From the NCBI RefSeq assembly GCF_000313135.1, contig NW_004457592.1, positions 511,811 to 575,810 on the forward strand: a stretch of 64,000 bases of DNA. The letters are read 5' to 3'. This DNA is from Acanthamoeba castellanii str. Neff (lineage: Eukaryota > Discosea > Longamoebia > Acanthamoebidae). Position numbers and translations under genes: made by a program. Shown piece after piece: positions 4,497 through 30,809 of the stretch (position 1 is the stretch's first letter; the number at the start of each line of letters is the position of its first letter). The notes below the pieces were generated by a model. It was not told where the DNA came from. It made no database searches and was given only the letters and a program-made list of their open reading frames with translations.

Positions 4497-5787
4497 ATCA
4501 GCCTTCACCACACACTCGCCACAGCCACCAGATGGAGACTTTCTTTGTAATATGTGCAGTGTTCCTTTTGTAGGCAACAACTGCCTTTCCAGAGTGCTGG
4601 TACCTGTAAAGCAGTTGTTTGCCCCCACATAAAGGGAGTTGGTAAATCAGAGGATTGCAGTTGGAAGGACAAAGTATAATGCATGTATATGATACAGATA
4701 TTCAAGCTTACATGCTTTGGGTCTCATTTCTGTTGACAAAACCTGCTGCAGGAGATCTTTAGATGCCTCTAACTAAAACTTGACCCCTCTTAACTCATTT
4801 TTCAAAAGTGATTTTGTTTGTGATTTTATCTTGCTTAAATGAGTTTTGTGTGATCTGTTTTGTCTGAAAAGATGTGTTCCCTGCTCCCCAGCCAAGAACA
4901 GCATCTGTTTGATCAGTGCACCTTTGTGCACAAGCACAGGAAGGTCCATGCAGGACCAAGAGCTCCAAGCCCTACAAGTCTGAAGTTCCTTCCATCTAGC
5001 CCTACTCAAATTGCTGATTTCATTGTAGCTGGTGTGCAGGTCAGTTGATGAGAAATGCCAGAAATGTAAAAGACATCATTTTAATGCCAGGTGATCTCCT
5101 GCACAATCCCACAAATCCATCAAGACGAAGCTGTACATACAGCCATTGTGTATAATCACATGTTCAATCACTCAACAATCAATAAAGTCTACTTTGTATT
5201 GGCAAGCACCAAGAACAGTAAAACTTGAGAAAAAAGAAAATCTTGTTTTTCTGCTGCACAGCACATGCACACTGTACATGCACACATGCATGCGGCATTG
5301 CCTGTTTCCCCTTTCATTGTTTGTTTAGCTCTCACTGTGGTGGTGCGCAGGGTGGTCATCATCACTGTGTGTGCCATCCATGAACTGGAGCAGGTGGTTG
5401 TGGAGCTCATGGTTCTCATGCCACAGGTGGGCAATCTCCTGCAGGAGGGCCTCACAGGTGGCCTCCCTGAACTCCTCCTCAAGCGCCACCTCCACTGCAC
5501 CAGCCTGCCTCACCGCCATTGCCAGCACCAGGGGCTTGTAATGGCAAAGACTGCATTGATGATGATCAAGCTTCAGCATTGAGACAAGGTACCACATTGG
5601 CTAAAAAGCCATGTTTGTCAATAGAGTCAATGTCAGGAATTTCTTCATTGTGCCAATAGCATAGAGTCGCCTTGGTGACTTGCAGGTACTGGTCGGTCCA
5701 GAGTGCAGGTAAAGGCAAGGCTTGTCCATTACATAGAGGGCTTTCTGATCCCAGGTGATGATGGCAGAGTGTGTGGTGAAGGCTGAT
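4497..5787. other. CpG-depleted island A between inverted 5S genes
   Basis: About 1.3 kb with A+T clearly above the neighbouring genes and only about nine CpG dinucleotides by eye, where roughly sixty would be expected from its base composition. TpG, CpA and CATG-type words are abundant. Only one convincing coding remnant is seen (5325-5560, minus). It is bounded by 5S copies 1 and 2 in inverted orientation and shares short sequence with island B. Inference: long-term cytosine methylation and deamination of a silenced insertion. Confidence 0.7.
5325..5560 (-). pseudogene. decayed coiled-coil coding fragment in CpG-poor island
   Basis: The minus strand reads a coherent helical segment including VEVALEEEFREATCEALL, then QEIAHLWHENHELHNHLL, then QFMDGTHSDDDHPAHHHSES. 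The heptad spacing looks like a real coiled coil, but the places where Arg would be expected carry Cys, Gln, His and Trp. Those are the codons made when CGN codons lose CpG by C-to-T change on either strand. No start codon, no full gene and no family are recognised. It may be the remnant of an exon preceded by an acceptor-like ACAAG at about 5545. Confidence 0.4.
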
Positions 5788-5905
5788 GGATACGGCCATA
5801 CTGCGCAGAAAGCACCGCTTCCCATCCGAACAGCGAAGTTAAGCTGCGCCAGGCGGTGTTAGTACTGGGGTGGGCGACCACCCGGGAATCCACCGTGCCG
5901 TATCC
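5788..5905 (+). rRNA. 5S rRNA, copy 2
   Basis: 118 nt, same sequence as copy 1 on the plus strand, with paired ends GGATACGGC/GCCGTATCC and an oligo-T terminator at about 5909-5913. The upstream 25-30 bases match copy 1, so the two form an inverted pair around island A. Confidence 0.97.
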
Positions 5906-5963
5906 TCCTTTTTGCTCGCGTAGTGTGTCAGACTGGCAGATCCATCTTGAAGTATGGTCCAGA

Positions 5964-6108
5964 GTGCGTGTGCTACACTCTCTGCACTCTGGACCAACTT
6001 TGTGCTCATCAGCGCCCCCAATGTCATGAGAAGATGGTCCAGAGTGCACGTAACATTGTTTTTCCTGGTACCGGTTGGTCCAGAGTGCAGAGAGTGTAGC
6101 ACACGCAC
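5964..6108. repeat. inverted repeat with 35-bp arms upstream of glycerate kinase
   Basis: Arm 5964-5998 is the exact reverse complement of arm 6074-6108, separated by 75 bases. The sequence GGTCCAGAGTGC occurs directly at about 5694, 5956, 6036 and 6078 and inverted at about 5984. A CCATCTTGAAGTA word also occurs on both sides (5942 and 6119). No protein is encoded. It could be a small foldback element or the source of a hairpin RNA. Confidence 0.75.
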
Positions 6109-6239
6109 AGAGCACACTCCATCTTGAAGTAGTGGACAAGTTAACAACGACGACAGAGAAGGTGGTGATGACGCCTCCAGCGACGAAGAAACAATACTTG
6201 CTGTTTTTTTCTCCCTGCTTTTCAAAAAAAGGAAGGAAA

Positions 6240-8149
6240 ATGGACAAGGCCGAGCGGGAGGGTGTGGTGCGTGTGCTGGGCTGCTTTGATTCCTTCAAGG
6301 ACTCCCTTGAGGCCGACCTGGTGGCCGATGCCGTCCTCCACGCCATAGCTCATCTCTACCCAGGTTCCATTTTGCTTTTCTTCCACTAAATGAAATTAAA
6401 TCTTTCTTTCATCATCTATCTAATCTCATGCAACAGGACGAGTGGAAACGCGGTCCCTTTCGTTGAGCGACGGCGGCAATGGCTTCCTCAACGCACTCAA
6501 GGGTCCTCTCGCACTCAAACTGGTCACCCACACCGTCATCGGTCGGTACACACGTGTGTGCGGTGTGTCGTGTGCGGCGGTGGCGTGGGCGATGTGCGGA
6601 GCGAGTGCTGATTCAACGGCCAACAGGTCCCTTGGGCGCGCCGGTGCAGGCGTCCTACGGGAGCAGCACCAGGCCGGACTGCGCGGGGAGGCTGGCCGTG
6701 GTCGAGATGGCCTCGGCGTCGGGCCTCGAGAAGGTGCCGCTCGACCTGCGCAACCCGCTGCACACCACGACCGAGGGCACCGGCCAGCTCATGCAACACG
6801 CCTTCGACGAAGGCCACAGCCACATCATCGTCGGCATGGTGCGTGTTGTGTGTGTGTCGTGTGTCGTGTGTCGTGTGTCGTGTGTCGTGCGTGCGTGTGT
6901 CGTGTCGTGCGGTGTGTGCGTGAGCTTACAGGGGCTCATGTGTAGGGCGGGAGTGCCACGAACGACGGCGGACTCGGCTGTCTGCATGCGCTCGGCGTTC
7001 GGGTCAGGATTCAACCTGACGACGAGGTAACACGACACACGACACACGACACACGACACGCGCAGCGTTTGGCTCATTGTGTGGGTGGTGGGGTGTGGAA
7101 GGACCCCGAGGAGCACCCGCCCATCGTGTTCGGGCGGCACCTGAACAAGGTGACGAGTCTCACGATGCCCGAGAGCGGAGTGCTCAAGGGCGCCACAGTG
7201 GAGATCGCCTCCGACGTGGACAACCCCTTTGTTGGCGAAAAGGGCGCCGTCGCCGTGCGTCTCCTCGACACACGACACGACACACACGGCGCACGCCATG
7301 ACACACACGGCACACGCATGACACACGCGGCACACAACGGCCGTGGTGCAGGTCTTCTCGGCGCAGAAAGGAGCGACGGAGGAGATTCAGAAGCGGCTGG
7401 AGGCGGGCATGCACCGGGTCGCGGGCTTCTATCGCGATTCGCTGCCGCTCGGGATCGACGTGGCCCACCTGCCCGGCGCTGGATCAGCTGGCGGGCTCAC
7501 GGGAGGCATCGTCGCCACCACCGGCGCTAAAATCAAGCGAGTACGCAACACAACACAACACGCCGCACGACACACACGACACACACGACACGCACTCACT
7601 GCTGGTTGTCTCGCACGGGCGCAGGGTATCGAATTCGTGGCCGAGGCGCTGGGACTGGAGGAGGCCATCAAGGGCAGCGACCTGGTGCTCACGGGCGAGG
7701 GGCGCTACGACACCCAGACCCAGCACGGCAAGACCGTCTCCGAGGTCCAAAAGCTGGCCAAGAAGCACCACAAGCCCGTGGTGGTCATCTGTGGGTCCAA
7801 GAAGGACATCCCAGAGGGTAAGTCCGCCACACTGCGTGTGCGTGTGCGTGTGCGGTCGTGCGTGTGTGTGCGGCTGATGAGATGAGCATTCGCCAGGGGA
7901 GGACCACCACGTCTACGAGCTGGTGTCGATGTACGACCTGGACACCTGCATGAACCGCACCGCCCAGTCTCTCGATGGGGTTCGCGTCCTTTCCCTTCAC
8001 TTCTCCCCCCCCGGGGGCCGCTCGATCTCTGACCTTGTGCGTGTGCGTGTGCGGTGTGTGCGGTGTGTGTGCAGTTGGTGAGGGCCAACGCCTCTCGTTT
8101 CCCGGTCCTCTCCCGCCTTGGCGCGCCCCAAGACCAGGCTTCGCTGTAG
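6240..8149 (+). CDS. glycerate kinase (bacterial type-1 family)
   Basis: Nine exons: 6240-6363, 6437-6541, 6627-6838, 6946-7026, 7066-7254, 7352-7540, 7625-7817, 7897-7979, 8075-8149, all in phase (about 416 aa). It matches the glycerate 2-kinase family (GlxK/GarK) along its length: N-terminal DSFKDSLEADLVADA, SDGGNGF, then GMGGSATNDGGLG, IASDVDNPFVGEKGA, GIDVAHLPGAGSAGG and SDLVLTGEGRYD. It phosphorylates D-glycerate with ATP, linking glyoxylate or serine breakdown to glycolysis. No targeting peptide is evident, so it is probably cytosolic. Introns carry CGTGT/ACACG low-complexity tracts on either strand. Its stop lies 50 bases from the stop of the convergent Tim gene. Confidence 0.93.
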
Positions 8150-8198
8150 CTGGCACCAGAGATGGTGGTGGTGATGATGTTGAGAAAAAAATCTGTTG

Positions 8199-8519
8199 TT
8201 AATCTTGCCCTTCGAGATTCGATGATGGTCGGTCTTGCATGAGGTCGGCCTTGGTGTTGGCTCGCGTGTTCTCCTCGGCGAAGATGAGCTGCACGCGCTG
8301 GCTGTACCGCTGCCACTTCTCGGTGCAGTTCTTGATGCACGAGTCCTCCTTGGTGGTGATGGGCGCGTCGTCGTCGACGTTCTTCATGCACAGCCGGAAG
8401 CATCGTTCCGACATCGAATTGAACATCCCCAGCACGCTCTTCATCTGCATTTCGTTCATCAACTGCACCATGTTCCTCGCCGCCGCCTCGCTCTTCTTCG
8501 CATCCGGCGCGATGTCCAT
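8199..8519 (-). CDS. small Tim chaperone (Tim9-like)
   Basis: Single exon, 106 aa. It shows the twin CX3C pattern CFRLC and CIKNC separated by 16 residues, the hallmark of the Tim8/9/10/13 family of intermembrane-space chaperones that carry hydrophobic proteins from TOM to TIM22 or SAM. The sequence around the motifs (LGMFNSMSERCF; CTEKWQRYSQRVQLIFAEEN) fits Tim9 best, but assignment among small Tims is only moderate. The start at 8519 is the first in-frame ATG. Tail-to-tail with glycerate kinase. Confidence 0.82.
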   Translation of the reverse strand: MDIAPDAKKSEAAARNMVQLMNEMQMKSVLGMFNSMSERCFRLCMKNVDDDAPITTKEDSCIKNCTEKWQRYSQRVQLIFAEENTRANTKADLMQDRPSSNLEGQD

Positions 8520-8789
8520 CTTGGTGAGCGATTGCGGATTATTATACTCTTTTTCCTTTTTCCTTTTTCCTTGTTGTCAAACGCGTTTCAAACATGTTTC
8601 AAAGCAGTTTCGAAGAATCTAGACTTTCTTCGGATTTTGAGTTTCATTTCCCATTCATTTCGTGGCCGCAGAAAATGTCCGAGCCTCGGTCATTCGTCGC
8701 TTCCCACAGTCGGCGATGTCTGCGTCCCCTGTTTTCGAAGAAGGAACCTGCGGCCACAAAAGCCGACCCAGCCGACGCCTTGCACCATC

Positions 8790-8845
8790 AACAAGCAAGC
8801 GCAACAACACCAACACCAACATCAACATCAACACCTCCTCCTACA
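8790..8845. repeat. CAACAC-rich tract in HSP20 leader
   Basis: Imperfect CAA/CAC/CCAACA repeats lie just before the chosen HSP20 start codon, consistent with untranslated leader. Confidence 0.6.
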
Positions 8846-8853
8846 ACAACGCA

Positions 8854-9573
8854 ATGCAGAGGACGACTTCGCGCACAGCTGCTCCCGCCATCAGGCAGAG
8901 GCTACTGAGTTCGGCCGCGACCGCCACCAGGCCGTCGTCGGCGCTCACGGCGGGCACGACGCAAACGATGACCTCTTCTTCTTCGTCTTCTTCTTCGTCG
9001 GCTCGCGGCCTGTCGGTCCACCTGCGCCCGCGTCACAGCCACCACCATGAGTCCTTCTTCGACGCCTTCGCACGCGATCCGTTCTTCCGGCCGCTGATCA
9101 ACGAGCTCGCCTCGACGGCCAAGCAGGTGGGCCGGCCGGCCGTGCCCAAGGAGGGGCCGCGACCGCGACCGCTCCACGCCAACGTCAACGTGCTCGAGAC
9201 CCAGCAGGGCTTCGCCATCGAGGCCGAGATGCCCGGCATTCGACGAGAGGACATCCGCGTGGAGGTGTGCGAGGGCGACCGACTTGTCATCCGAGGCGAG
9301 AAGCGATTCGAGGGCCACACTGCGAACAACACGAACACGAACACGAACACAAATGTGAGGGGCGAGCTGAAGGAGGCGAAGGAGGCGGCCGAGCCACAGC
9401 AGCGGTACCTGACGTTCGAGCGAAGCTACGGCACCTTCGAGCGCACGTTCGCGCTGCCGGAGAACGTCGACGCGAGCAGGATCAAGGCCTCGTACACGGA
9501 TGGCGTGCTCAAGGTCGAGCTGCCCAAGGCCGCCAAGGAGACGCCCAAGTCGTGGACCGTTGAGATCAACTGA
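8854..9573 (+). CDS. small heat-shock protein HSP20, probably mitochondrial
   Basis: Single exon, 239 aa from ATG 8854. The frame is open further upstream to 8662, but the stretch before 8854 is rich in Asn/Thr repeats and looks like 5' UTR. From 8854 the N-terminus (MQRTTSRTAAPAIRQRLLSS) is Arg/Ser/Ala-rich with no acid, as in a mitochondrial presequence. The alpha-crystallin domain follows: VLETQQGFAIEAEMPGIRRE, a loop of Asn-Thr repeats, then FERSYGTFERTFALPENVD and SYTDGVLKVELPK. It is an ATP-independent holdase for unfolded proteins. The (NT)n loop between beta strands is an insertion unlike most members. Confidence 0.9.
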   Translation: MQRTTSRTAAPAIRQRLLSSAATATRPSSALTAGTTQTMTSSSSSSSSSARGLSVHLRPRHSHHHESFFDAFARDPFFRPLINELASTAKQVGRPAVPKEGPRPRPLHANVNVLETQQGFAIEAEMPGIRREDIRVEVCEGDRLVIRGEKRFEGHTANNTNTNTNTNVRGELKEAKEAAEPQQRYLTFERSYGTFERTFALPENVDASRIKASYTDGVLKVELPKAAKETPKSWTVEIN

Positions 9574-9799
9574 GCCTGGCGGCGTGGGGAAGGTGTGGCA
9601 CACAATAAATATTTAATCGATGTTGTACGTGCCACAGGAGCTTCCTGCAGCCTACCGCCACGAGTAGCTGCACAAGGTATCAAGTATCAAGATGAAGCAG
9701 GAGTATGGCTGCCTCCCGAAGCCCGGGTTGGAGCATGTCTTCGCGAAATGGGAGAAAATGAAGATGAGTAAGAGATCAGACCGTCTATTGAAAAATGGG

Positions 9800-10164
9800 T
9801 TACTTGTTGAGCTTTTCGGTGGCAGATCGCAGGAACAAGTTGTTCAGCTTCTCAATCTTCTTCAGCACTTGCGCATGAGATGCCTTGTACTTGAGACACT
9901 GTTGGGAGGGTAGTTAGAACTGGGAGATCTAAATTGGTCGAGAGGGAGGTGCGTACCGTCTGATCGTCCGTCACCTTGAGCACCAACTTGCCATCGCAGT
10001 GGCGGTACTTCATCACATATCGCGTTTCTACAAATTTAAATTAGTATAGATTGAGCAAATGAAACGAAACAGGAGCAGGGCGGCAGATGATTACTGTTGG
10101 GGTTCTCGTTGTAGAGCTTCTGCGCGGCCTCAAAGAACACCTTCCATGACGTCAAGTACACCAT
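9800..10164 (-). CDS. SRP9: signal recognition particle 9 kDa protein
   Basis: Three exons on the minus strand: 10095-10164, 9957-10027, 9800-9898 (79 aa). MVYLTSWKVFFEAAQKLY, then RYVMKYRHCDGKLVLKVTDD, then a Lys-rich helix ending KIEKLNNLFLRS give the SRP9 fold along its full usual length. SRP9 pairs with SRP14 on the Alu domain of SRP RNA and slows elongation during ER targeting. It lies about 200 bases downstream of the Rap-GAP stop on the same strand, with its own start. Confidence 0.95.
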
Positions 10165-10366
10165 CTTTGTTGTTGCGATTTTTTGTTCTTTTGCGCTTGT
10201 TCTTTATCGTGAAAATCTCTTTGCTGACGTCAGCAGTCAAACTTGGTCGCCGTGCTGATGTTCGCTGGACATGTGTACAGGCGGGTTCGCTCACCCCGTC
10301 GTCGTGGTTGATGGTGTTGTTCGTTTGCTGTAGGCAGGCCTGTTGTGGCCTATTGTATAGGGTTGC

Positions 10367-12147
10367 TCACTTGGTCTTCTGCAGCTTCTCGATAGTACTC
10401 TCAATCATCCTCAGCCGTGTGTGCTCCAGCTTTGCGGCGAACACGTTGGCCTTCAGCGCTGACCGCTCGCTGTTGATGACTGTCGGACGTTGCGTGGTCA
10501 GCAAAAGCCAACATGTGTAATAATAAAGGAATAGAGGTGACCACCAGGGAAGGCTTTAAACGTACGCTTGCTGAAGAAGAACTCCCTGAAGCTGGCGTCA
10601 AGAGAGAAGCGTTGGTTGGCCAACAGCTGCGGCCCGAAGGGACGCACGCCCTGCTTGACCGCAAACTCGAGTCGCACCGTTTGATCCCCCGGGTCCATCG
10701 ATACGACGGCGTAGATATCTATGATGGCGGCCACCAGCACCCGTGCGATCACAGTCAGGCGGGACCTCGCGAGCAACAACCACACAAACTGCCAGCGGTT
10801 GTAGTGCACGTACGATTGAATTGCGTCTTCATCATGCACGGGTCGAACGTGGCGCCAGGCTCCACGAAGACCACCACAACGATGTCGTTCCCTGACATTG
10901 ACAAAGCGGTTAGGAGTGGTATGGCATCACACAAAGGAGGGAAAGTGGGTTGATGTACCGATGTGACGCTTCCTTTCGAGCTGTTGTGGATCCTTCGGGT
11001 TGTAGGGGAGCAGAGTGCAGACATGGAACATCACGTTCAGGTCTCGGAACAACGTGAACACCGAATGAGTGCCCGTCGTATCATCTGCGCGAGTGTGCGG
11101 GAGAGAAAGAAATGAGAACCCTACGATGACGTGACTAGAGGAGTGTGTGTACTCTTGACGTCAAGTCCGCCCGTGAAGCCCGGCCAACCCTTGAGGGTGA
11201 TCCGGTCGCCCAGGAAGTTCAAAAATTTCTCCAGCTCCGGGCTCGTCGCTGTTTGCACGCATACGATGAAGGCTTAGTTCGGTGGCTGACCTCGTGGCGC
11301 GTTGGGCGGCGCGTGGTGTGCGTACAGTTGGAAAACATCTCGTTCTCGCCCTGATTCTTCTTGTAGTAGAGCACGCCAAACTTGTAGTCAAAGGAGAAAT
11401 GGGACCGCTCCATCCGCAGCAAGTCGTCGGTTATGTCTGATGCGCATCAGCCAAAAAGAAGAAGAAAAGCTGTTAGCTCTCGGAGCTGCAAGCGATGGTT
11501 CAGTGTTTTTTTTGCTTGGGGGCAGTACCGATCACCGATTTCTGAAACTTCATGTCCTGAATCTCTGGCTGTTTGTTGGCACAAAAGCAGACAAAGGGAG
11601 GAAGTGTCAGAAAGGAATGATAACTATGAGCATTCCTTGAGTGGGGGGGGGGCGAGATACCAGGTAGCCCATAGGGCCACAGGCCATGCCCAGTCCCTTG
11701 AAGAGACTGTTTTTATCAGCTGCGCTACGAACGAATATCTGCTTCGATCCCTGTGTTTCCCACACGCGAGAGCAACATCCGTCACTCGTTAAGTTAGCCC
11801 GCATGCACGACGCTGCATGATATGCGTGCGTGCGTGCGGTGGTGGTGCGTGTGCGTACGTGTTTGCTCTGTATAAGGCAGCGGTGTACAACGATGTTTCG
11901 AGACTCGCTGTTAAAACTGAACTTCTTGTGCGTGTTCATGACCAGCCTGGCGGACGATCTGAACGTGGCCACCGTCTCTATGACCGTCCTGCACGTACGT
12001 GGATTCATGCGATGAGGCGAATGACAACTGAGGCGGGGCGAACAGCCAAACGTACTTGGAGCCCGAGCTTCCTGTGGGCGCAACGGACACCAACACTGGG
12101 CCTACGCGTGGATCCACTCCCCAGTAGTTGGTGTGTTCTGGGTAGGC

Positions 12148-12182
<35 letters not shown>

Positions 12183-13403
12183 GGACCATGACAGGTAGAA
12201 ACAGAGAGTCATGAGCGAATGAGTTGTTTTCATCACAAGGCTCGCGCCTCGGGCACATGTGTGCGCGCTACCTTTGCCGTTGAAGTAGATCTTGAAGTAG
12301 GGGCTACTGTGATCATCCTCGAGCGCGTTGTACGCTCCCTCAACGAAGTCCTGTGCACATGAGGACGCAGAAGCCAAAAGGTCAACGTTGCGACACGCAC
12401 GAAAGCTTGGCATCGACCGCACAAGGGAGGGAGTAAGTGTTACCGCTGAGCCACGCTCCACGTGCCACCCGCCATCCGGGCCGGAGGGCTGGACCATCAC
12501 GTTGGATACCCGCGGGCTGCCGTTCCAGAAGCTGGGCATCGGCACCGGGAAGACACCGCTCGAGTGCAGCCTGCCCTGGGCCGGCTTGTTGGTGTTGGGC
12601 AAGCCTGATGACGAAGGGCAAGCGGCCGCAAGTGTTATGGGCACGCACTCAAAAGTTGACGTGGCGGCAAAGCCGTGGCGATGGCTGGAGAGGATGAGCG
12701 CACTGGGGGGCGGCAGGGCGGCAATCATGTCTGAGTCGAGGGCAGGCGAGTCGTTCCATTCGCGCACGATGCCCTTGTCTACGAGCTGCACGTAGGAAGA
12801 TCGCCGCATCATGCTCGAATCGAGTGCCGCCAGGAAGGCAGGCGCCGGACGAAGCGACAATCTGCCGGCCGAAGGCATGTTCATCCCCTCCGGCATGGGG
12901 GGCAGCGTGGGAGGAAGGTGTAGGGACGGCCCAGATGAAGGGGCTTCCTCGACGGCCGGCAAATCAACTGATTTCTTCTTTCCGAAGATGCTGGTCCTCT
13001 TGGTCGGTGGCTTTGGCGATGATGACGCCGTCACATCGCTCGATTTCTTGATGCGGGCCAGCTCCTTCGCATCTGTCGATTTGCTGCGCGAGTGGCTGTT
13101 GTTCCAAGTTGATTCTTCATCGAGGTTCGAATTTGAACGTTGGATGGGAGAGAACTGTGTGGTAGTGGCCGAGAACGGGGGCGGCAGATGAGGCAGCTGG
13201 GGGACCGCAAATTGAACTGGCTGCCCCAAATCGCCGCCAATTGAGGCCTTGCGTGAGATGGGCTTGTTCTCCCGTGTCGTTTGGACGCCCACGGTAGCGG
13301 TGCGCCGACGAGGCGACAGCTCCGCGCTGGAGCTCATCTGGGCCATCACTGGCGACGCCGACCGTTCCCCCTTGATGATCGCACTCGACCCCGAGGTGTA
13401 CAT
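10367..13403 (-). CDS. Rap/Ran-GAP domain protein
   Basis: Twelve exons on the minus strand: 12444-13403, 12272-12350, 12056-12137, 11889-11988, 11661-11738, 11529-11568, 11326-11436, 11153-11248, 10959-11084, 10814-10891, 10566-10718, 10367-10479; phases agree throughout (about 671 aa). The first exon codes a long Ser/Pro-rich, basic region with likely phosphosites. The rest is a complete Rap-GAP domain: [72 protein letters not shown], the catalytic-helix Asn in [20 protein letters not shown], and a basic C-terminus. It should stimulate GTP hydrolysis by Rap-type GTPases, which control adhesion and motility. ATG 13403 is the first in-frame Met; an extra 5' exon is possible. Confidence 0.9.
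12150..12180. repeat. (AC)n microsatellite in Rap-GAP intron
   Basis: About 15 AC units lie just beside the acceptor of the Rap-GAP exon starting at 12137. Confidence 0.9.
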
Positions 13404-20957: not shown

Positions 20958-21024
<67 letters not shown>

Positions 21025-22475
21025 GAAGAAACCTGTCTCAATGGCGAGGCTGATAGAGTTGAGGATCCACGTTGAGTTCTGGAAGACCACAACTGCAAAG
21101 AGTGTAAGTGGTGAAGTGGACCATCGTTGGGGCCGGCAGGCAGGCAGGCAGGCAAGCGCAGCAATGTACCCGCGTCGATTGATGCCGTGGTGACTGTGAG
21201 TGGCCCGTTGGAGATCCATGTGGAGTCCCTGATAGTGTGGACTGCGATTTTGAGCGCGCAACAGAGGTGTCAACTTCGAGCGCTGACACTGCAAGATTGA
21301 GGAATGGAACCACCACCCACCCCCATCTTGAGCGCCAAGAAGACATGGGCCGTCCTGCACCCAACGACTGCCGGCTTGCAAAACCACTCCTGCGCGAGGA
21401 GCGCCAATCAGATTCCACACGATCACATCAGCGCCTCACGTCAATGAACGCAACTCAAGTCTTGAGTGGTACCTTGTGCGTAGCCGCTGGAGTAGCTCAT
21501 GGAGAAAACGCCCTTCTGGTTCCACGTCATGCCCCTCCCGAGCAATCCTGCCACTCCGCGTGCGGACACCACGTGAGCTGCGGAAATGAATCGGCTCGGC
21601 GGAAGCTTACGCTCAACGCAGTGGACGAACCAGGAGTCCCGGACCCGACCGCGTTGTCGACCTTGAGCTGTCCGTTCTGGTTCCACACCGCGTCGATCAC
21701 CGCCAGAAGAGGGAAAGGGTTAACTGCCCCCCCCCAACAGACAAACAGAAGGTTCAGTCGTGGGCTGTAGAATTGGCGTGATGCACTGTACTGGTATTCG
21801 TTGAGGAGCCGTTGATGAACACCGCAGCATCCTGGAACACGGTGGCGCCTGCCGTGACAGCCAAACCTGCGCCAAAGTCGCATCATTGCTGTGTGACTGA
21901 CACATCAACATGATTGCAAGCAACATCATGTATATTGGTACGGCTGGCGCACCCCCCATTAGGTTCAAGGTGCCGTTGGTGAAGGTGAAGTTCACTCCGC
22001 TGATGGAAAGCCAGGGCTGATTGTCCAAGGAAACGTTGACTTGGCCCAGCAAACTGGAAGCAAGCGCAAATCGCCTTAGTAATGGAGCAGGGCACAAGGG
22101 GGGAGAGAGTACTTGAGGGTGACGTTGCTGGCGGTGCAGGTGCAGTTGATTGTCTCCGCATAGGTACCGGCATGGACGCGCACTTCGGTGTTGGCGCCGA
22201 CACTGGGTAGGACCGCACAGATGGTGGTGTACGTGCAGCTGTCGCACACCTCCACGGCTAAAAACACAACCCAAAAAATATGTGATTTACACAGCTTGGC
22301 ACCTTTGTGGTGTGGTGGGGGGGGGGCGAAGAAAGGCCTAAAGCCTACCCATAACGTTGGTGCTCGCCGTCAACATCATGACCAAGAGGGCGCAAGTGAG
22401 CGCCCACAGCTGGGCGTCCACTTTTCTTCCCTCCTCCAACCCTACCCAGACGAGGCTGCTGTGATCGCGGTCCAT
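18962..22475 (-). CDS. type I membrane protein built of exon-encoded W-motif (beta-helix-like) repeats
   Basis: About seventeen exons on the minus strand. Exon 1 (22349-22475) ends in a hydrophobic stretch (ALTCALLVMMLTAS) that looks like a signal peptide. Exons 2-4 (22113-22257, 21953-22053, 21792-21866) code Cys-rich and strand-rich sequence. At least nine following exons, between 21723 and 20318, each carry one copy of a W-x-x-(N/Q/D)-G-like motif: VWNQNG, TWNQKG, RWVQDG, TWISNG, TWILNS, TWIQNS, VWKQYG, RWNQYG, TWFSNG. Most of these exons begin and end in phase 1. A globular region (about 19282-19863) and a transmembrane helix (IIGVAVAVPLAILVVLAVVV) with a short cytoplasmic tail close it. 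The repeat pattern suggests a right-handed beta-helix ectodomain, hence adhesion or binding at the surface. Exon limits in 20200-21700 are approximate. Confidence 0.72.
20961..21021. repeat. (GT)n microsatellite
   Basis: About 30 GT units in an intron between two W-motif exons of the surface-protein gene. Confidence 0.95.
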
Positions 22476-22584
22476 TGGTCTCTCAGATGAAGAGGGAACG
22501 CACCACTACTGCTGAGAAGTTTCGCCTCTCACTATTCCCTCAACCAATCAGTTCAACTCCAGTTACAGTTCAGGAAGCACACAA

Positions 22585-22760
22585 AAAGGCAGGCAAACTC
22601 AAATTCTTCGCATTTTTCTGTATTTTTACAAGGCACACCATCACAGGCTGCCTGCATCGTCTGCTGCACCAAAGTTGATGGCTCCATGGTGCCTATGCTG
22701 GTGGTACAACAAGGAAGGACCATGGCACCACAATGCCACTGATGATCCCCTTCAGTCCCT
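22585..22760 (-). pseudogene. decayed 3'-end copy of the W-motif surface protein gene
   Basis: This stretch aligns with the 3' end and downstream sequence of the gene at 18962-22475. The shared block includes ACTC(A/G)AATTCTTCGCAT, CATCACAGGC and the last codons, which read HRHHGAINFGAADDAGSL and stop at 22641 against RHHGAVNFGADDSAGGL in the intact gene. Many differences are CG in the gene versus TG or CA here. Upstream of about 22760 similarity is lost. It is the tail of a former tandem paralogue in the same orientation. Confidence 0.65.
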
Positions 22761-22914
22761 TTCCTCTTTTTGATGATGGTGGTGATGATTGCTGAGTGGT
22801 GATGATGGCAAGGGAGTAAGTTTCTGTGTGTATGGTATTGGAGATGAGGATGGAACGAGAGGAGCTGAGTTGGTCGGGAGAAGGTACAAGGAGGGCTTTG
22901 TTTGAGGGTTAGGG
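22761..22914. other. spacer with telomere-like repeat at its edge
   Basis: No gene seen. CpG is scarce. At about 22906-22921 the sequence GGGTTAGGGTTAGGGG supplies the ICMT stop codon on the minus strand (CCC TAA). Confidence 0.5.
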
Positions 22915-24032
22915 TTAGGGGATCATGGGGATGCCAGTGGGGGTCTTGGCCTTGTAGGCTCGGTACTGATCGCCGAAGAACTCCACCAGGGTAGCCTCCT
23001 CGTACTGGATCCTGTCGCTGAAGAACTTCCACGACGCCACAGCGAAGCCCTGCGCACAAACGAAAAGTAAACGAGATGATCGAGGAACGAAGTGAGAGAT
23101 TGCGCGTGCGCGTGCGTGCGCGTGCGTGTAAAAGGTAGCATACCGCGATGCAGATGGGGTTGAAGAGCACCACCTGGGTCATGACGGACCACCAGAACCA
23201 ACCGAAGTAGCCGGGGTGCCTCACGTACCTGCATGATGATGATGAGGTGCAATTCAGCCACTGAGTATTCATTCTCCCACGTGGACGACGCGCACGCAAG
23301 CACGCATGCAGGCGACTGATGTAAGCGCTAGCTATTGAAGGCGTACTGGTAGATGCCCTCGGTGACGAGCTTGTGCTCGGGCCTCTTGTCCTCGGCAATC
23401 TGGTGGGTAAAGTTGTGCGCAGCAGTGATCAAGGCGGCCACGCGGACGACTAACAACCAAGGGACACGGGGCCAAGGTCAGAGGAAAGAGCTCGAGGAGG
23501 CGAGCTGAGGTGGTGCCCAGAAGGGCCTCCTGGGAGAGGGGCGTACCCTGTCCGAAGATGGCGCCGAGGAGGCCGAGGTAGATGACGGGCGAGAAGGTCT
23601 TGAGACCAGGGAACAGCCAGAGCTCAACGAAGTACTCCACGAACGAGGCGGCCATGGCGACGTTGAACTCGAAGCTGTGGTTGATAAGGAAAGCTGAAGG
23701 GACAGGAAATCAGAAGAATAATAGAAATGTTATTAATTATTTGTTGATAAAGATGGAGGTGTAGCATGAAGTAGTGGTTGGATCGGGGCGGGGGGGCGCG
23801 TACACTCGGCCGAACAAATCTTGGGGTTGAAAAGCGCTACGCAGATGTACTCAGAGAAATGGAAGAAGCCCAAGAACATGAGGTACCATCCGAGGCCCCA
23901 CACGGATTCGGAGAGGAACGCGAGGCCAGCACCGAGGCCCAGCGCGATGCCGCAGGCGCAACCCATCACGGCCATCGCCGCATGGCCGTGGCGCGTGAAC
24001 AGCTGATTCTCTTCGACGTATTTCTTAAACAT
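22915..24032 (-). CDS. ICMT: protein-S-isoprenylcysteine O-methyltransferase
   Basis: Five exons on the minus strand: 23804-24032, 23547-23693, 23347-23449, 23144-23228, 22915-23049 (232 aa). Several membrane segments (ALGLGAGLAFLSESVWGLGW; LGLLGAIFGQ; FGWFWWSVMTQVVLFNPICI) and the Ste14/ICMT signature HKLVTEGIYQYVRHPGYFGW, with the C-terminal EEATLVEFFGDQYRAYKAKT that completes the SAM site. It methylates the prenylated C-terminal Cys of CaaX proteins such as Ras and Rho in the ER membrane. Head-to-head with the RBR ligase, with 162 bases between start codons, so the two may share a promoter region. Confidence 0.95.
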
Positions 24033-24194
24033 TGTGTTTCTTCAGGCAGTAAGGAAGGTGCAATCTCGTGCGCGAATGAGAGTGATGAATGGCCAGGGCC
24101 AGTTGAGCAGATAGTGTTGACCCCCCCGTCGTCAGGCAATTTGCGGCCGAAAAGAAAAGGGTGGAAATGCTGTTCTTTCTTTACGTAGCAAGCC

Positions 24195-27100
24195 ATGGAG
24201 GAGGTGCGTTGCTGCTCTTTGGGGGCGGACAAGTCAAAGGCCAGCTCTTTGCTCACAACTTTGCCTCTTCTGTGGTGTGAAAGGACAGGTGGCAACGGAG
24301 AAGGAATGGCCGCTGGACGTCTGCGGTACTCCTCACCCCTCCCCACCATTGTGATCGCAAGACTCTGACCTGCTGTGCTGCCGCTGCAGAGGCGTCATGG
24401 CGACTGCAGGAAGCCGAGCTCTCGGCCCTCCGAGCTCTCTTCATGGACGACTTCAAGGGTGCGCGTACCACCTTTTGCGACTTCTCGTTTGCGTGTTCCG
24501 CCACATCACCGTTGGGCTAACTCAGTATGGACGGTACGCAGAGAGCAACTCGCTGCCGCCGCGCTTCCAGATCCGCATCCGTAGCAGCGACCTGACCGAA
24601 GAGGAGGAGTGCTTCCTCACCTCCCACGGCTACCAAGGTACCTACCAGGACCACCTGTGCTCCTCTCCATGATCGTGAGAGAGAGCTCCAGGACTCACGT
24701 GATCTTCGGTACCCAGTCTCGCTGTCGCTGGTGGTGACCCTGACGCGAGCCTATCCCGAGGAGCCGCCGATGGTCGAAGTGCGCTGGGACGGCCTGCAGG
24801 AGGGCCTCTCCGAGTCACGCTACCCCGAACTCTACTCTGTGCTCCAGCGTCAGGTAGGTAGCAATATGCCCTCCGCCGCCGCACCAAAGAAGACCGCATC
24901 TGATCTTGTCCGCTCACGGCTGCCCATCGCTGGCGCCTTTCGTCATCCAAGGCTCAGGAGAACTTGGGCTCCTTCATCATCTCCGAGATGGTCGAAACTG
25001 CGCGCGCCTGGGTCGTTGGTGCGTGCAGGCTCCCCACCCACCATTGAAGGTTCGAGGGGGACTGACTATGTGTCATCCGACTGTATGCAATGGTGTGTGC
25101 GTGCGTGTGTGCGCGCGTGTGTGTGCGTGCGTGTGTGTGCGCGCGAGCGCGCGGTGGTGCGTGTGCGTGAAAACAGCGCAGGCTCGGGCCAAGTTGCAGC
25201 AATTGAAAGCCAAGGCCGAGCGCGAGAGGGAAAGGAGGAAGGCCGTGCGCAGCAAGCTGGGCTTGGGGTCGGGCTCGCGCGAAGCCCTGCTCAAGTCCAA
25301 GGAGGACGAACTGACCCGCAGCATGCAGCAACGGCGCGTCAGGCATATGATCGAAAAGGACACCTTCTACGGCCAAGCCATGAAGGAGATCTACAAGTGG
25401 GACTACGACATCTTCAACATGGAGCAGGTCCTCTCCCTCCAGAAGGTACTCAGTCTTATCCATTGGCCACTGCTCCTGGCACCAAGCCCTGCTCATCTTC
25501 GTTCTTCATTCTTCATTAGGCCAAGGAGGCCAAGGTGCAGGAGGTGATGGGTCCGCAGGTGCCGGCCGCGGTCGTGCGTGTGCTTCTCCACCATGCACGG
25601 TGGGACGCCGACGCCCTCATTCGCCGCTATCGCCTGCTTACCGATGGCGCGTCGCCGGCCTCGCCGGCTCGTGCCGCCGGATGTGAGGGCGATCTCGGCG
25701 ACGAGAGCGAACGGGGCAAGGGCATCCAGCAGCTCTACGCTGAGGTCGGGCTCCCATTCGTCGAGCGCGGCAAGCACGAGTCGGCCGGCGACGAGGAAGA
25801 GGTGCACTTCCACCTGATGGCCTCGATCCCCGCCAAGGCCTCCTGCGGTATCTGCATGGACGACTTCAGCACCAGGACCATGACCTCCCTGTCGTGTGGT
25901 ACGTACCACATCACCACATACGCGACGCGCTTGGTCATGACCGTGGTGTGGCTGTGGTCTCATTTCCGTTCTTTTCTTCTTTTCTTCTTTTCTTTGTATA
26001 TAGGTCATTGGTTCTGCAACGACTGCTACGGCACGTACCTGGTGATGCAGATCACGGATGGCGCGTCGGACGCCATCCGGTGCGCGCACTTCCGGTGCCC
26101 GTTCATTGTCGACCCCGTGACGGTGGTGTCGCTGGTGTCGCGCGAGATCTACCGCAAGTTCGTCACCTTCGCCGCCCAGCGCTACATCGAGACCGACAAC
26201 AGCCTGTTCCGGTGCCGCGGCACGCGGTGCGCCAGCATCATTCACCTACGGCACCACACCAAGGACGTCGCCTGCCCCTGCTCCCACATCTCGTGCTCTC
26301 AATGCGGGTACGGCGCCACAGGGCTTAAAGTTTAGGTCTGGCGCGCTGCTGACGTGGCCGATCACCACATGCGGGTGGGCAGGGAGGAGGGCCACTTCCC
26401 GATACCGTGTGATGTGGCCAAGTGGCACATGAAGAACTATGGTCACCAATACGCCCCGAAAGACCTCGAAGCCACGTTCGACTGGCTCATGGTACGACTC
26501 TCTCTTTGTGCGTGCGTGCGTGTTCGCCACTCAGTTCTCACATCGCTTCCACGCCCCGCATCACAGAATAACACCAAAGACTGCCCCAAGTGCGGAAAGC
26601 CAATCCAGAAAGACGGTGCGACACATGAACACAGCACGCACCACACAACACACCTCACGCTACACCCACACAACACCTCATCATAAACTCTACGTTTTCA
26701 TCGACGTGCACCACTCTGACAAGAACTGCCGCCCGTTTCCAGGAGGGTGCAACCACATGACGTGCCGCTCGGTTGGCTGTGGCTATGAGTTTTGGTAAAT
26801 TGCTGGCTTCCCTTCTGTGTCTGTCTGCGTGCGTGCGTGCGTTGTGTGTGTGTCGCGTATGTGTCGTGTATGTGTGTGCTGGCACCGACTGATTAGGTTC
26901 GTTCCACCGGACATAGCTGGCTCTGTGGTGCCAAGTGGACGTATCACGACTGTAATGGCACGTGGAAGGGCCAGAGAGATCGCGAGGAGCGGCTCAAGGA
27001 TCAGATCCTGTCGAGCACCGTCACCTTCTTCGAGTGGTACAACGCGCAGCTCCTCCCGTTGAACACCTTCGCCAAGATCGCCGGTACGCGCGCCGTCCCT

Positions 27101-28026
27101 CGGTCGTGTGCGGCTGGCCTTGTCGCGCCCTAACCACGCATCGCGTCGGCAGGGGCCACAAGCATTAAGGCCCAGCGGTACCTCGAGAAGCGAAAAGACG
27201 CGTCTGCCAGGGGAGTCCGCGTCATCAAGAGCGCTCTCCATCACATCTTCCTGGTACGCGACTGCCCCCTGCTGGATCGCTGGTGGCGCTCATTCACACA
27301 CACACACACACACGTCTCAATACGTGGGGCGCATCGACCACCACCGTAGGGGCGGTACCTGCTGGCCCAGGTCTCCAAGCTGGGCTGCTATCGGTCGGAG
27401 CATCCCGGATCCGGCAGCACCAAGAACCTGCAGGCCGCTATGTTTGGCGTCAACGCCTCCCTGGTGCGGGTCAAAGACTTCTTGGACATGCCCGCCAAGC
27501 ACCTTTCAATCGGTACGGCACCTTTATTTATATTTAAATTAACAATTAACAATTTATTTATCTATTACTTACCACTACTGGTGACTTGTCCTGACCGTGC
27601 AGAGATGCTCGAGAATGCGTGTCACACCATGCGCCAGCGGGCGAGCGAGCTGGTGGGTGTCGTGACCAGGCTGCTCACCGAAGCCGACGGACCCCAACAA
27701 GCCCCAGCCATGGTCCGTGTGTTGTGTCGTGTGCGGCAGTGTGCGGTTATGCGTGTGTTGTATCTCGAACGAGCGCGCTGACAGTGTCCGGCACGCAGGA
27801 GCTGGTGGTACGGAGGCTCAGCCAGCAGAAGGGCGGCAAGCGCGTTCCGTTCCCGTCGTCGCTGGAGGCCCTCCTGGCCGACGGAGGCCACGTGCTGGGC
27901 ATCACCGCCGTCAGCGCCCGCACCATCGACAATCGCAAGCTGGGGCCCGCCTCGCTCGTCGAGCTCCTCGACCGGACCGTGGTCCACCTGCTCACCGCCG
28001 TCGAGGAGAAGGAGGTGGCGTCGTAG
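24195..28026 (+). CDS. RBR E3 ubiquitin ligase, Ariadne type with N-terminal RWD domain
   Basis: Sixteen in-phase exons; the first is only 9 nt (24195-24203) and is spliced to 24392-24458. The others run 24542-24637, 24717-24853, 24958-25018, 25177-25445, 25520-25898, 26004-26307, 26383-26491, 26567-26615, 26743-26794, 26917-27083, 27153-27253, 27350-27512, 27603-27712, 27799-28026 (about 766 aa). Order: RWD domain (LQEAELSALRALFMDDF to FIISEMVETARAW), a charged helix, a UBA-like helix bundle (VVRVLLHHARWDADALIRRY), RING1 (CGICMDDF...CGHWFCNDCY), IBR, RING2 with KDGGCNHMTC where the first Cys is the catalytic thioester residue, then a C-terminal Ariadne-like region. Such ligases pass ubiquitin through the RING2 Cys, often with cullin-RING partners. 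An RWD at the N-terminus is unusual for Ariadne proteins and more typical of RNF14. Confidence 0.92.
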
Positions 28027-28556
28027 CCGCAGCACCTCCTCGACCTCTCCTTGTTGAAGACAGATCGTGAAGTCGAGAGTGGAGCTAAACAATGCAATTT
28101 AAAAATCAAATTCACTTGCCTAGTTGTGGAGCCCGAGGCCAGGTTCGGGCGGAGGGGATGGCGGGCATGATGTACTCGGGCCAGGAGGCGGTGACCAGAC
28201 AGAACGCAGCATTCAGCGATGGCTCTACGCCAGTGGTGTTGACCACGGACGTTGATGCTAAGCTGACCCACCTGCTCAACGCCTGGCACGTCGTCAACTA
28301 CGAGCCTCCATTGGACATGGAACAATACGCACATTGGTACACGCCACGACCCACATAAGTGCGAGTGGGCTGGTCTCTGGCGTGAGCCGGGGCGCTCTAG
28401 CGAGGAAGAAGAACCCGCCACACACCTGCTCGTCTAGGAGATCCAACAGCTGGTTCGAGAGGAGAGGAGGAGAACTGGAGAGCAGCAGTGACTACCATCT
28501 GCAGCTCACGAGAGCAGCTGAAGCAAAGACAGAGAGAATGCCGGCCATTTGCTGAT
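28027..28556. other. spacer before 5S copy 3
   Basis: Holds a short open frame, 28092-28358 plus strand (88 codons, LLNAWHVVNYEPPLDMEQ near its end), without a recognised family, splice context or homologue; it is more likely chance or a remnant. The rest shows nothing. Confidence 0.3.
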
Positions 28557-28674
28557 GGATACGGCCATACTGCGCAGAAAGCACCGCTTCCCATCCGAAC
28601 AGCGAAGTTAAGCTGCGCCAGGCGGTGTTAGTACTGGGGTGGGCGACCACCCGGGAATCCGCCGTGCCGTATCC
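28557..28674 (+). rRNA. 5S rRNA, copy 3
   Basis: 118 nt, identical in layout to the other copies, but with CCGCCGTGCC where the others have CCACCGTGCC (one A-to-G change at about 28661). Preceded by GCTGAT and followed by CCTCCTTTTTGCTCTC, the shared flank with the T-run terminator. Confidence 0.96.
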
Positions 28675-30809
28675 TCCTTTTTGCTCTCTTTTTGCTGCTA
28701 ACTAAGCTTGATTGTCTCAGACAACCCACGCCTTGTGATGCAATTCACTAACATAGGAGCATGCAGCACTTCCTCTATGCAATGCTGTGCCTGTTTGGCC
28801 TTGTGATGGTGTTCTCTCCATCTTCTACACCAGTGGCCATTTTTACCTGCATCATCTTCACATCAAACCAACAGTCATTTTGAAAAGTGATTTTGTTTGT
28901 GAGTTTAACCTCATAAATACCATCATATAGAGAGGTAACTGGGCCATCAGTCAAGGTCTGGAATGACCAATTTCTATCATATTCATGTATCAAAAATATA
29001 CAACCAGACACTTACTTTATCATGTGCATGTACATGATGAATACACACGTTTTTTTTGGTCCTGTCCTGACCATGGCAACAGCCAGCACACAGAAACCAT
29101 AAAAGGAAAAATCATGGCTGCTGGGGGACAAAAAGTCAATTTTTATTCAGCAAGCAATTCAGAGGGGTCATGGGTTACATCTCAGTGTGGAGAGTGCCCT
29201 TCATCTTACTTCTTGGCCTCCTGAGGAGGTGGCTGCTCACTGTGAGGGTGGCCTGGTGCTGCTCTTTGTCATTCAGTTGATATCAAATTATTGCAGCATG
29301 CATCTTCACATGATGTGTGGGCCAAGGAGGAGATATATTAGCCAACATTCTATCATGTACACATACACAATAGAATGCCCTGCAGTTTCACAGCATAATG
29401 GGCTTTGAAAAATAGCATGTATGCAATGGGGCAGTTACCTCCTTCAGGAGCTTCAACAGTTGTTGTTAGCCATGGCTGCTGATGGCAGTGTGACTTGCAC
29501 CTACATGTACAAAAACTGTAAAACAGGACACTTATGTTATCATGTACACATATGCAATGACTACATGTTCAACCTGCTGATACTAAGTTTAGTGCACATG
29601 TACATGATCCAGAAAATCTGAAAACTGAGCTTGTTTTGTGTTAGTGCTCCTCTGAATAACTTCAACTTCATGTACCTTGCCTTTGCTTTCATACCCTCCA
29701 TCAATTCCATAATCAGTGGCCAACATGCTACTCTCACATCCAGTTTGTGGTCAACCTCACCACATTTTGGCTGAATTGGAGCACTATTCCTGAAGATAAA
29801 ATTCCACCACAACAAAGGTCCATCTCACACTGATAAAATCACTTTTAACTCCACACATTCCAAGTTTTTATGAAATCTTTTTCATCTTAAGTCCTCAATA
29901 TCACTTATCAGCAGCAGTATAGCATGTCAAAATCAAAGATTCAGATCCAAATCCAAATCTTCAAAACTGCCCTTTAAATCAAGAATGTCAAACCTCACAA
30001 TTTTAGCACAACCTCCACAGTCATTTGTGACCTCTCATTTCAAATGACCACAAGTTTGTTGACATGTCCTCACAAAGAACAAAAAGAAGGAAAAAACCAG
30101 GAAGAAATGGGAAGAATGGCTGTATTCTTTAAAGAGAAAATAAACACTGCATTGTTTATGTTCATGGCAGTAAGTACTTGTCACAGAAGTGTTGCAGGCA
30201 GGTGGGCTGACCCATGCATTGAGAAGCTCATCATTCATCATGTACTTGAAGGTGTTGCTGAGAATGCATATGTTGGTGATACTGATACAGCTGCAAAGGA
30301 GCCCTAAGGTTTATGATGGCCAATCTGTTGGTGCACTTGATGAACATGGGCAATTCAGCCATAATCAAAAGCATCATGAACATGAACATGATGATGTGGT
30401 ATCCAAAATGCCCACCTGCGCCACATGCCTGCCCACCCACTCGCCACCCTGCCTGTCTGTCCATCCACCATGGCTTGCCACATGAGGACTGAGTCAATGG
30501 TGGCCTTTACCCCTCACATACTAAAAGCACCCTTGCCTTATAATATCATGGTCTCAAGGCTGACCTCTTATGTTGCTCTGCCCTACATAAAGTACACATT
30601 TTTTCAAAAAGAAGCAAGAGCATGGAACATGTAACATTTTGGTGGTCATGTTGAGGGTGGCAGACAGTGCTTTTTACCAGTGCCTATTCCACGATCAACT
30701 GGCAACCACCAAGAAGTGGGGAGAAGACCACCTCATCCAAGAAGCATGGTGATGAGGATGATTACAAGTACTAAACTCTAGCATGTGAATGGAGAGCAGT
30801 GGTGCTGAT
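28675..30809. other. CpG-depleted island B between direct 5S genes
   Basis: About 2.1 kb, A+T-rich, with only about five CpG dinucleotides by eye where more than eighty would be expected from composition. CATG, TGCA and TGTACA words are frequent. Internal repeats are visible: the surroundings of 29003 and 29523 share (A/C)CAGACACTTA...TATCATGT, and 28881 shares AAAAGTGATTTTGTTTGTGA with 4804 in island A. No gene is supported. It lies between 5S copies 3 and 4 in the same orientation. Confidence 0.7.

What the first reader, a model, noticed from the sequence alone, without database searches (positions are those of the whole stretch)
4497..30809. Two CpG-starved islands, each bounded by 5S rRNA genes
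Seen: 4497-5787 has about 9 CpG in 1.3 kb, and 28675-30809 about 5 in 2.1 kb, against expectations of roughly 60 and 85 from their base composition, while the genes around them are CpG-rich. Both are A+T-richer, rich in TpG/CpA and lack intact genes. One is flanked by an inverted 5S pair, the other by a direct pair. Inference: sequence inserted with or next to 5S copies was targeted by cytosine methylation and decayed by deamination, so 5S genes may mark or bound silenced chromatin in this amoeba.
Basis: partly seen in the sequence, partly recalled or inferred. Interest (0 to 1): 0.82.

Follow-up and report, generated by a model that had tools for sequence, protein, structure and literature searches.

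The report
CpG-starved islands between Pol III genes
In this amoeba genome, short stretches that have lost almost all their CG pairs, the usual scar of long DNA methylation, often lie exactly between copies of 5S rRNA or tRNA genes, which suggests that these small RNA genes mark the edges of silenced DNA.

Summary
Confirmed. Islands 4497-5787 and 28676-30809 hold 8 and 5 CpG for 67 and 94 expected and end exactly at 5S genes. The pattern is neither unique to this window nor to 5S: of 8 sequenced 5S pairs closer than 2.7 kb, 6 enclose such an island (4 of 6 without the two given), 2 do not; tRNA genes bound five more, in loci picked by similarity to the islands. Most of these bounding genes lie in duplicated modules, direct or inverted. 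Decay is CpG-specific: against a CpG-rich copy of part of island 1 elsewhere in the genome, 46 of 51 transitions fall in that copy's CpGs. The bounding genes keep their CpGs. TE1 and MITE2 relics inside islands are enriched near Pol III genes; the L017 island matched nothing else. Most sampled 5S genes have no island, and several islands lack a Pol III gene at an end. Best reading: DNA caught between duplicated Pol III genes, methylated and decayed, with the genes limiting it. CpG decay is shown; methylation, barrier function and gene conversion are inferred. No methylation data; organism unnamed.

The parts
4497..5787 (.). CpG-starved island 1 (1291 bp, O/E 0.12)
28676..30809 (.). CpG-starved island 2 (2134 bp, O/E 0.05)
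4378..4496 (-). 5S rRNA gene bounding island 1 on the left
   Evidence: Rfam RF00001
5788..5906 (+). 5S rRNA gene bounding island 1 on the right (inverted pair, 5' ends inward)
   Evidence: Rfam RF00001
28557..28675 (+). 5S rRNA gene bounding island 2 on the left (one base differs from the common 5S; not a CpG loss)
30810..30928 (+). 5S rRNA gene bounding island 2 on the right (direct pair)
   Evidence: Rfam RF00001
4367..4521 (-). left copy of the duplicated 5S module of island 1 (inverted, 99.4% identical to the right copy)
5762..5917 (+). right copy of the duplicated 5S module of island 1
28550..28696 (+). left copy of the duplicated 5S module of island 2 (direct, 96.6% identical to the right copy)
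30803..30947 (+). right copy of the duplicated 5S module of island 2
5050..5546 (.). stretch of island 1 that is a CpG-decayed copy of a CpG-rich stretch on contig C221 (minus strand there; 84% identical)
28872..30056 (+). relic of a DNA transposon-like family (TE1; 28-bp terminal inverted repeats, 4-bp target duplications seen in four other copies) inside island 2
30029..30056 (+). right terminal inverted repeat of the TE1 relic; the left one was not found here with up to 4 mismatches
56329..56447 (+). single 5S gene without an island (contrast)
22471..22970 (.). CpG-poor stretch without a Pol III gene (contrast)

Best explanation
Each island is a small block of formerly (perhaps still) CpG-methylated, silenced DNA enclosed by Pol III genes, mostly by two copies of a duplicated module (5S here, tRNA elsewhere). 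A module was duplicated, in direct or inverted orientation. The DNA between, made of a copied host stretch (island 1), transposon relics (island 2) or unmatched DNA (L017), was methylated at CpG and decayed to TpG/CpA by deamination. Decay runs almost up to the Pol III genes and largely stops there, because these genes, kept active and bound by their factors, do not let methylation through; their own CpGs are kept by selection and by gene conversion between the two copies. Shown: CpG-specific decay in place, exact bounding by Pol III genes, module duplication, association beyond this window. Inferred: methylation as the cause, the barrier, gene conversion.
For: Island 1 against its CpG-rich copy on C221: 46 of 51 transitions at CpG, 10 transversions. 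CpG loss with TpG/CpA gain. Six of 8 sequenced 5S pairs under 2.7 kb enclose an island of O/E 0.02-0.12; 5 tRNA-bounded islands. Over 10 of 11 Pol III-bounded islands (L041 left out) O/E at 100-200 bp is 0.02 inside, 0.81 outside; for 5S in the first 25 bp 0.17 inside, 0.63 outside; the genes hold 181 CpG for 188 expected. Direct pairs L017 and L049: same flank lost CpG inside 9 times, outside once (sign test p 0.02). 36 TE1 columns mix TG and CA. TE1 at 11 of 39 and MITE2 at 8 of 39 loci lie within 2 kb of a listed Pol III gene, 2.5% expected. 4 of 44 5S sides against 3 of 559 background windows. Modules near-identical in the core, diverged beyond indels.
Against: No 5mC, H3K9me or small-RNA data. 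Two close 5S pairs enclose CpG-normal DNA: C49/L014 (173 CpG for 172, flanks not alike) and C207 (2543 bp, O/E 0.83 and 1.09 in its two parts; the two genes share a short upstream flank). Starved islands without a Pol III gene at an end in view: window 22471, L012, L039, L040, L042, L043. At L027 a 5S gene has starved DNA on both sides. In the first 25 bp beside tRNA genes inside (0.46) and outside (0.37) do not differ. 18 of 22 5S genes in L009-L028 have no starved side. 7 of the 9 inside losses come from alignments of about 0.7 identity. A published survey finds DNA transposons as a class not enriched for 5mC in A. castellanii.
Confidence: 0.6

Rival explanations
1. Passive refuge: spacers between duplicated Pol III genes are gene-free DNA in a gene-dense genome; inserts land and survive there, are silenced like any repeat, and the islands end at Pol III genes only because those genes and the protein genes beyond are under selection. 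No barrier function.
For: TE1 and MITE2 loci lie at varied distances from the nearest listed Pol III gene (59 to about 1500 bp); islands without Pol III ends exist; TE1 copies have their own 4-bp target duplications; island 1 holds a copied host stretch.
Against: Non-coding duplicated flank close to the gene is decayed inside more than outside; the L017 island shows no match elsewhere in the genome, although that search skips common words.
Confidence: 0.45
2. Transposons target Pol III genes on insertion, as Ty1/Ty3 in yeast and TRE/DGLT-A elements in Dictyostelium do, and are silenced where they land.
For: Enrichment of two families near Pol III genes; targeting by other elements is published (PMC5911963 abstract; PMC5006619 passages).
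Against: No set insertion distance seen; the families have inverted ends and are not the known targeting retroelements; does not explain the duplicated module at the other end, the copied host stretch of island 1 or the unmatched L017 island.
Confidence: 0.25
3. The unit [Pol III module - island - Pol III module] is itself a mobile or composite element whose ends carry 5S or tRNA genes.
For: Near-identical terminal modules in direct or inverted orientation.
Against: Island bodies are mostly unrelated to one another; L017 has no other copy and L049 only short matches; module homology fades beyond indels; TE1 in the islands has its own ends. Target duplications at the outer module ends were not tested.
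Confidence: 0.08
4. The islands came from a CpG-poor source and did not decay here.
For: TE1 copies L038 and L039 differ by few transitions (1.4%), so part of that family was already CpG-poor when it spread.
Against: Island 1 against its CpG-rich C221 copy; flanks inside and outside; TG/CA mixed columns.
Confidence: 0.02

Closest known systems
5mC-marked heterochromatin of Acanthamoeba castellanii (PMC12344493, PMC12210455; passages read)
   Same: CG methylation on repeats, intergenic DNA and viral inserts, with H3K9me; introns and exons low; a cytosine-5 methylase gene is present here too.
   Different: The word search found no 'rrna' in either text, and the passages read do not describe 5S or tRNA genes as edges or CpG-starved islands; LINE and LTR elements, not DNA transposons as a class, are the enriched ones.
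Pol III genes at heterochromatin in fission yeast (PMC6538654, PMC4370569; passages read)
   Same: tRNA and 5S genes lie in and around heterochromatin, tRNA genes act as boundaries; the first paper suggests that Pol III promoters drew transposons which were then silenced.
   Different: There the mark is H3K9me at centromeres and subtelomeres; here islands of about 0.7-2.9 kb, dispersed, recorded as CpG loss.
Mouse B2 SINE as a DNA-methylation boundary (PMC8136502; abstract read)
   Same: A short Pol III-type unit sits at a methylation boundary.
   Different: Mobile SINE limiting hypomethylated regions, with CTCF; here host 5S and tRNA genes.
Transposons targeting Pol III genes in Dictyostelium and yeast (PMC5006619 passages; PMC5911963 abstract)
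   Same: Mobile elements gather beside Pol III genes of a compact genome.
   Different: Retrotransposons at set distances; TRE-like elements are reported as not identified in A. castellanii; here DNA transposon-like relics at varied distances.
Cassandra and related elements with 5S in their terminal repeats (PMC10886601; seen only in the search listing)
   Same: 5S-type sequence at both ends of a unit.
   Different: Here 3 of 6 5S pairs are inverted, tRNA genes do it too, and bodies are not shared.

Membership tests
CpG-methylation-decayed silenced DNA | CpG loss with TpG/CpA gain | tested here: met
CpG-methylation-decayed silenced DNA | 5mC present on the island | not testable with these tools
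   no methylation data; methylase gene present
Pol III heterochromatin boundary | silenced domain ends at the Pol III gene, the other side active | tested here: inconclusive
   CpG O/E step by proxy, but L027 is starved on both sides of its 5S gene and the first 25 bp beside tRNA genes show no step
Pol III heterochromatin boundary | domain spreads when the Pol III gene or TFIIIC is removed | not testable with these tools
   needs an experiment
RIP (repeat-induced point mutation; features recalled) | CpA to TpA mutation, hence raised TpA | tested here: not met
   TpA O/E 0.37-0.57 in nine Pol III-bounded islands against 0.51 in the rest of the window
RIP (repeat-induced point mutation; features recalled) | the repeats themselves mutated | tested here: not met
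   bounding genes hold 181 CpG for 188 expected; five variant 5S copies show no CpG loss
5S-bearing terminal-repeat retroelement (Cassandra type) | terminal repeats in direct orientation | tested here: not met
   3 direct and 3 inverted among six 5S-bounded islands; the five tRNA module pairs are inverted
5S-bearing terminal-repeat retroelement (Cassandra type) | shared multicopy body | tested here: not met
   parts of islands 1, 2 and L048 do recur elsewhere
5S-bearing terminal-repeat retroelement (Cassandra type) | primer-binding site, polypurine tract, outer target duplication | not tested
   -
Pol III-targeting transposon | excess of insertions near Pol III genes | tested here: met
Pol III-targeting transposon | set insertion distance or side | tested here: inconclusive
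   distances vary, but the gene list was incomplete and the copies are fragments

The most novel reading that the evidence does not exclude
Two linked copies of a Pol III module are themselves the trigger: the cell senses closely spaced duplicated 5S or tRNA modules (through pairing or through Pol III read-through RNA) and methylates whatever DNA lies between, even unique DNA, while sparing the genes. The duplicated pairs would both start and fence silenced micro-domains all over the genome. In line with this, the close 5S pair without duplicated flanks (L014) has no island, and the L017 island matches nothing else.
Probability: 0.13. Interest if true: 0.87.

Novelty: new variant of a known kind. 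Interest (0 to 1): 0.62.

Why it matters
Pol III genes as silencing boundaries and as transposon refuges are known in yeasts and Dictyostelium. Here a gene-dense amoeba keeps a fossil record of such domains in CpG decay, at dispersed 5S and tRNA genes, with a CpG-rich copy of part of one island still present for comparison. If the published 5mC maps of Acanthamoeba apply to this organism, the barrier idea can be checked at many natural replicates, including direct pairs where the same flank lies inside and outside. It also ties silencing to the birth and homogenisation of 5S and tRNA gene copies.

Tried and rejected
RIP-type mutation: rejected, TpA is not raised and the repeats keep their CpGs. 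Island as a decayed tandem copy of its own outer flank: homology reaches only 33 to 137 bp into the L017 and L049 spacers and is not above shuffles for island 2. Common origin of the islands: bodies mostly do not match each other. A Pol III gene at every island end: no ARAGORN or Rfam hit at the ends in view of L012, L039, L040, L042, L043, nor around window 22471-22970. Pfam on 18 window ORFs: six had a hit, one of them under its cut-off, none in an island. Organism: three protein searches gave no name for it; one had no hit, one four hits with a short match to Balamuthia among them, one four hits up to 96% identity in unnamed metagenome data. That the 5S sequence is Acanthamoeba's is recalled, not tested. 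tRNA list: the family search scored only 63 of 805 candidates; the wide B-box pattern gave 549 places with a backward control of 241 and listed only the first 100; so two cleaner patterns were used (97 hits, control 3; 77 hits, control 0); a third was no better than its control (119 against 117) and was not used. The B-box consensus was recalled; a form of it matched 11 of 17 tRNAs in hand.

Mended: the C207 5S pair (2543 bp, CpG-normal) had been left out by a 2.3-kb cut set after seeing the data; it is now counted (6 of 8). The C221 comparison was added. The lack of a step in the first 25 bp beside tRNA genes is now told. Odds changed: novel reading 0.17 to 0.13 (C207 pair); CpG-poor source 0.05 to 0.02 (C221 copy); the rest unchanged.
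Full report
OBSERVATION. The two islands are real. 4497-5787 holds 8 CpG for 67.4 expected and 28675-30809 holds 5 for 93.8, in a window whose mean O/E is 1.01. Against 2000 composition shuffles each they stand at z -9.3 and -11.9, with TpG and CpA at 1.6-1.7. Rfam places 5S genes at their very edges, an inverted pair (4378-4496 -, 5788-5906 +) and a direct pair (28557-28675 +, 30810-30928 +), and a fifth 5S gene at 56329-56447 with no island. A 500-bp CpG-poor stretch at 22471-22970 has no 5S gene and no Rfam match.

DECAY IN PLACE. Part of island 1 (5050-5546) has one long match elsewhere in the genome, on C221, in CpG-normal surroundings. Over the aligned stretch the C221 copy has 54 CpG and the island 5; 43 of its CpGs read TG or CA in the island, 3 are kept and none is the other way round. 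In a slightly wider alignment 46 of 51 transitions fall in CpGs of the C221 copy, against 10 transversions. So this piece was CpG-rich and lost its CpGs, faster than it changed elsewhere, as methylation with deamination predicts. That it was methylated is inferred.

GENOME SAMPLE. The window lies in an unnamed 38.4-Mb assembly of 250 contigs. One search scored 47 5S genes; three more turned up (window 28557, and two on C207 in L033/L035), so there are at least 50. Flanks of 29 were profiled: 5 in the window, 22 in L009-L028, and 2 (L033, L035) that came in by similarity to island 1; six more came with L048-L050. In L009-L028, chosen only by the order of the search list, 4 of 44 5S sides have O/E under 0.25 in the first 250 bp, against 3 of 559 background windows more than 1 kb from a 5S gene (Fisher p 7e-4). 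The windows are not independent and two of the four sides belong to one island; the four sides belong to 4 of the 22 genes.

PAIRS. By the list, ten neighbouring 5S pairs start within 2.7 kb of each other. Eight were read. Six enclose a starved island: the two given, L017 (1539 bp, 6 CpG), L048 (1455 bp, 3), L049 (1777 bp, 2) and L050 (1050 bp, 6). Two do not: L014 on C49 (2061 bp, 173 CpG for 172 expected) and C207 (2543 bp, O/E 0.83 and 1.09 in its two parts; only the 250 bp after the first gene are low, 0.29). The remaining two (C44, C160) could not be read; C160 holds MITE2 fragments in both its gaps by coordinates.

tRNA GENES TOO. In loci fetched for similarity to islands 1 and 2, starved islands end at tRNA genes in L032 (Glu pair), L038 (Asp pair), L034 (Ser left; right one Tyr by my reading of the anticodon, with an intron-sized insert), L041 (Asp left, Gly right, more tRNAs on both sides) and L044 (Gln and Ile pairs). 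So 11 islands in hand have a Pol III gene at both ends. L027 and L028 have a 5S gene at one end, L033 at the end in view. L039, L040, L042, L043, L012 and window 22471 show none at the ends in view. As these tRNA loci were picked by similarity to starved islands, their share is not a genome estimate.

ANATOMY OF THE BOUNDARY. Duplicated modules of 142-351 bp, 96-100% identical, lie at both sides of the island: direct in window 2, L017 and L049, inverted in window 1, L048, L050, L032, L034, L038, L041 and L044. In L034 and L041 the duplicated arm belongs to one of the bounding genes only, its partner lying beyond the other bounding gene. The L014 pair has no such flank identity; the C207 pair shares some 40 bp upstream, little downstream. 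Beyond the near-identical core the homology goes on in diverged form after an indel, clearly in L017, L048, L038 and L049; non-coding arm sites differ by 3.3% and genes by 0.4% over the ten pairs compared. I infer old duplications with a core kept alike by gene conversion. Over ten islands (L041 left out) O/E is 0.26 in the first 25 bp inside, 0.18 at 25-50 and 0.02 at 100-200, against 0.53, 0.74 and 0.81 outside; the genes hold 181 CpG for 188 expected. Split up, the first 25 bp differ for 5S (0.17 inside, 0.63 outside) but not for tRNA (0.46, 0.37; few sites); from 25 bp on both do. In the direct pairs, where a flank lies once inside and once outside, CpG is lost inside 9 times, outside once and kept in both 4 times; 7 of the 9 come from alignments of about 0.7 identity, and island 2 gave none (sign test p 0.02).

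CONTENT. Island 2 carries TE1, a DNA transposon-like family of about 1.3 kb with 28-bp inverted ends and 4-bp target duplications (TAGG, CCTT, TTGT, CAAG in four other copies). L048 carries MITE2, about 460 bp with some 38-bp inverted ends. In seven aligned TE1 copies 36 columns mix TG with CA, and a CpG cluster survives in L038, L039 and L040. L038 and L039 differ by few transitions (1.4%), so part of the family was already CpG-poor when it spread. Taking one hit per locus (each scored only 40 candidates), query dropped and neighbouring hits merged by hand, 11 of 39 TE1 loci and 8 of 39 MITE2 loci lie within 2 kb of a Pol III gene in an incomplete list (50 5S, 63 tRNA matches, 97 and 77 B-box hits, partly the same genes), for 2.5% expected of uniform positions (p 2e-9 and 5e-6). 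Pol III genes cluster, so the p values are optimistic. The L017 island had no match but itself and L049 only short ones; such searches skip common words.

MECHANISM. Best reading, 0.6: DNA caught between duplicated Pol III modules is methylated at CpG, decays, and the methylation is limited by the Pol III genes. Methylation is inferred from the decay, from a cytosine-5 methylase gene on C215 and from published 5mC in A. castellanii, where repeats and intergenic DNA are methylated together with H3K9me, though DNA transposons as a class are not enriched (PMC12344493, PMC12210455, passages). The barrier step is inferred from the inner edge; L027, starved on both sides of its 5S gene, speaks against a strict barrier. 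A passive refuge is nearly as likely.

KNOWN AND NEW. Fission-yeast work has 5S and tRNA genes in and around heterochromatin and proposes Pol III promoters as transposon targets later silenced (PMC6538654, PMC4370569, passages). Among the titles and abstracts listed by ten searches of the open library I saw none on 5S or tRNA pairs with methylated or CpG-starved islands in Acanthamoeba; subscription papers are mostly not in it. No tool named the organism; if it is not Acanthamoeba, the published 5mC maps do not carry over.

Noticed in passing
L010, L018, L028 around their 5S genes: 5S flanks are mosaics: L010 and L018 share much of some 80 bp upstream, L018 and L028 about 45 bp downstream, as if copies had exchanged flanks through the 5S gene (by eye).
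   Followed up: partly
window 5050-5546 and C221:69511-70023 (L030): Island 1 holds a decayed copy of a CpG-rich stretch of C221 with open frames around it; what that stretch encodes was not tested.
   Followed up: partly
L010:5148-5184: A 37-bp piece of 5S lies 46 bp downstream of the intact 5S gene.
   Followed up: no
window 22471-22970: CpG-poor stretch (O/E 0.24) overlapping the end of an ORF with an ICMT domain, no Pol III gene.
   Followed up: partly
L012:31-1170: CpG-starved island (O/E 0.11) 3.8 kb from the 5S gene, left end at the locus edge.
   Followed up: partly
L041:143-394 and 2909-3160; L044:247-525 and 2686-2964: tRNA modules (Gly; Ile plus Gln) are repeated in inverted orientation at both sides of an island.
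   Followed up: partly
genome G000, list: Neighbouring tRNA/5S entries 0.5-3.5 kb apart are frequent: 36 on opposite strands, 21 on the same strand, in an incomplete list.
   Followed up: no
window 37008-37988 (-): ORF with a histone deacetylase domain, HDAC6-like by sequence.
   Followed up: no
L039:2677-3092 and 3352-3767: A 416-bp direct repeat, 100% identical, inside a CpG-starved stretch.
   Followed up: no
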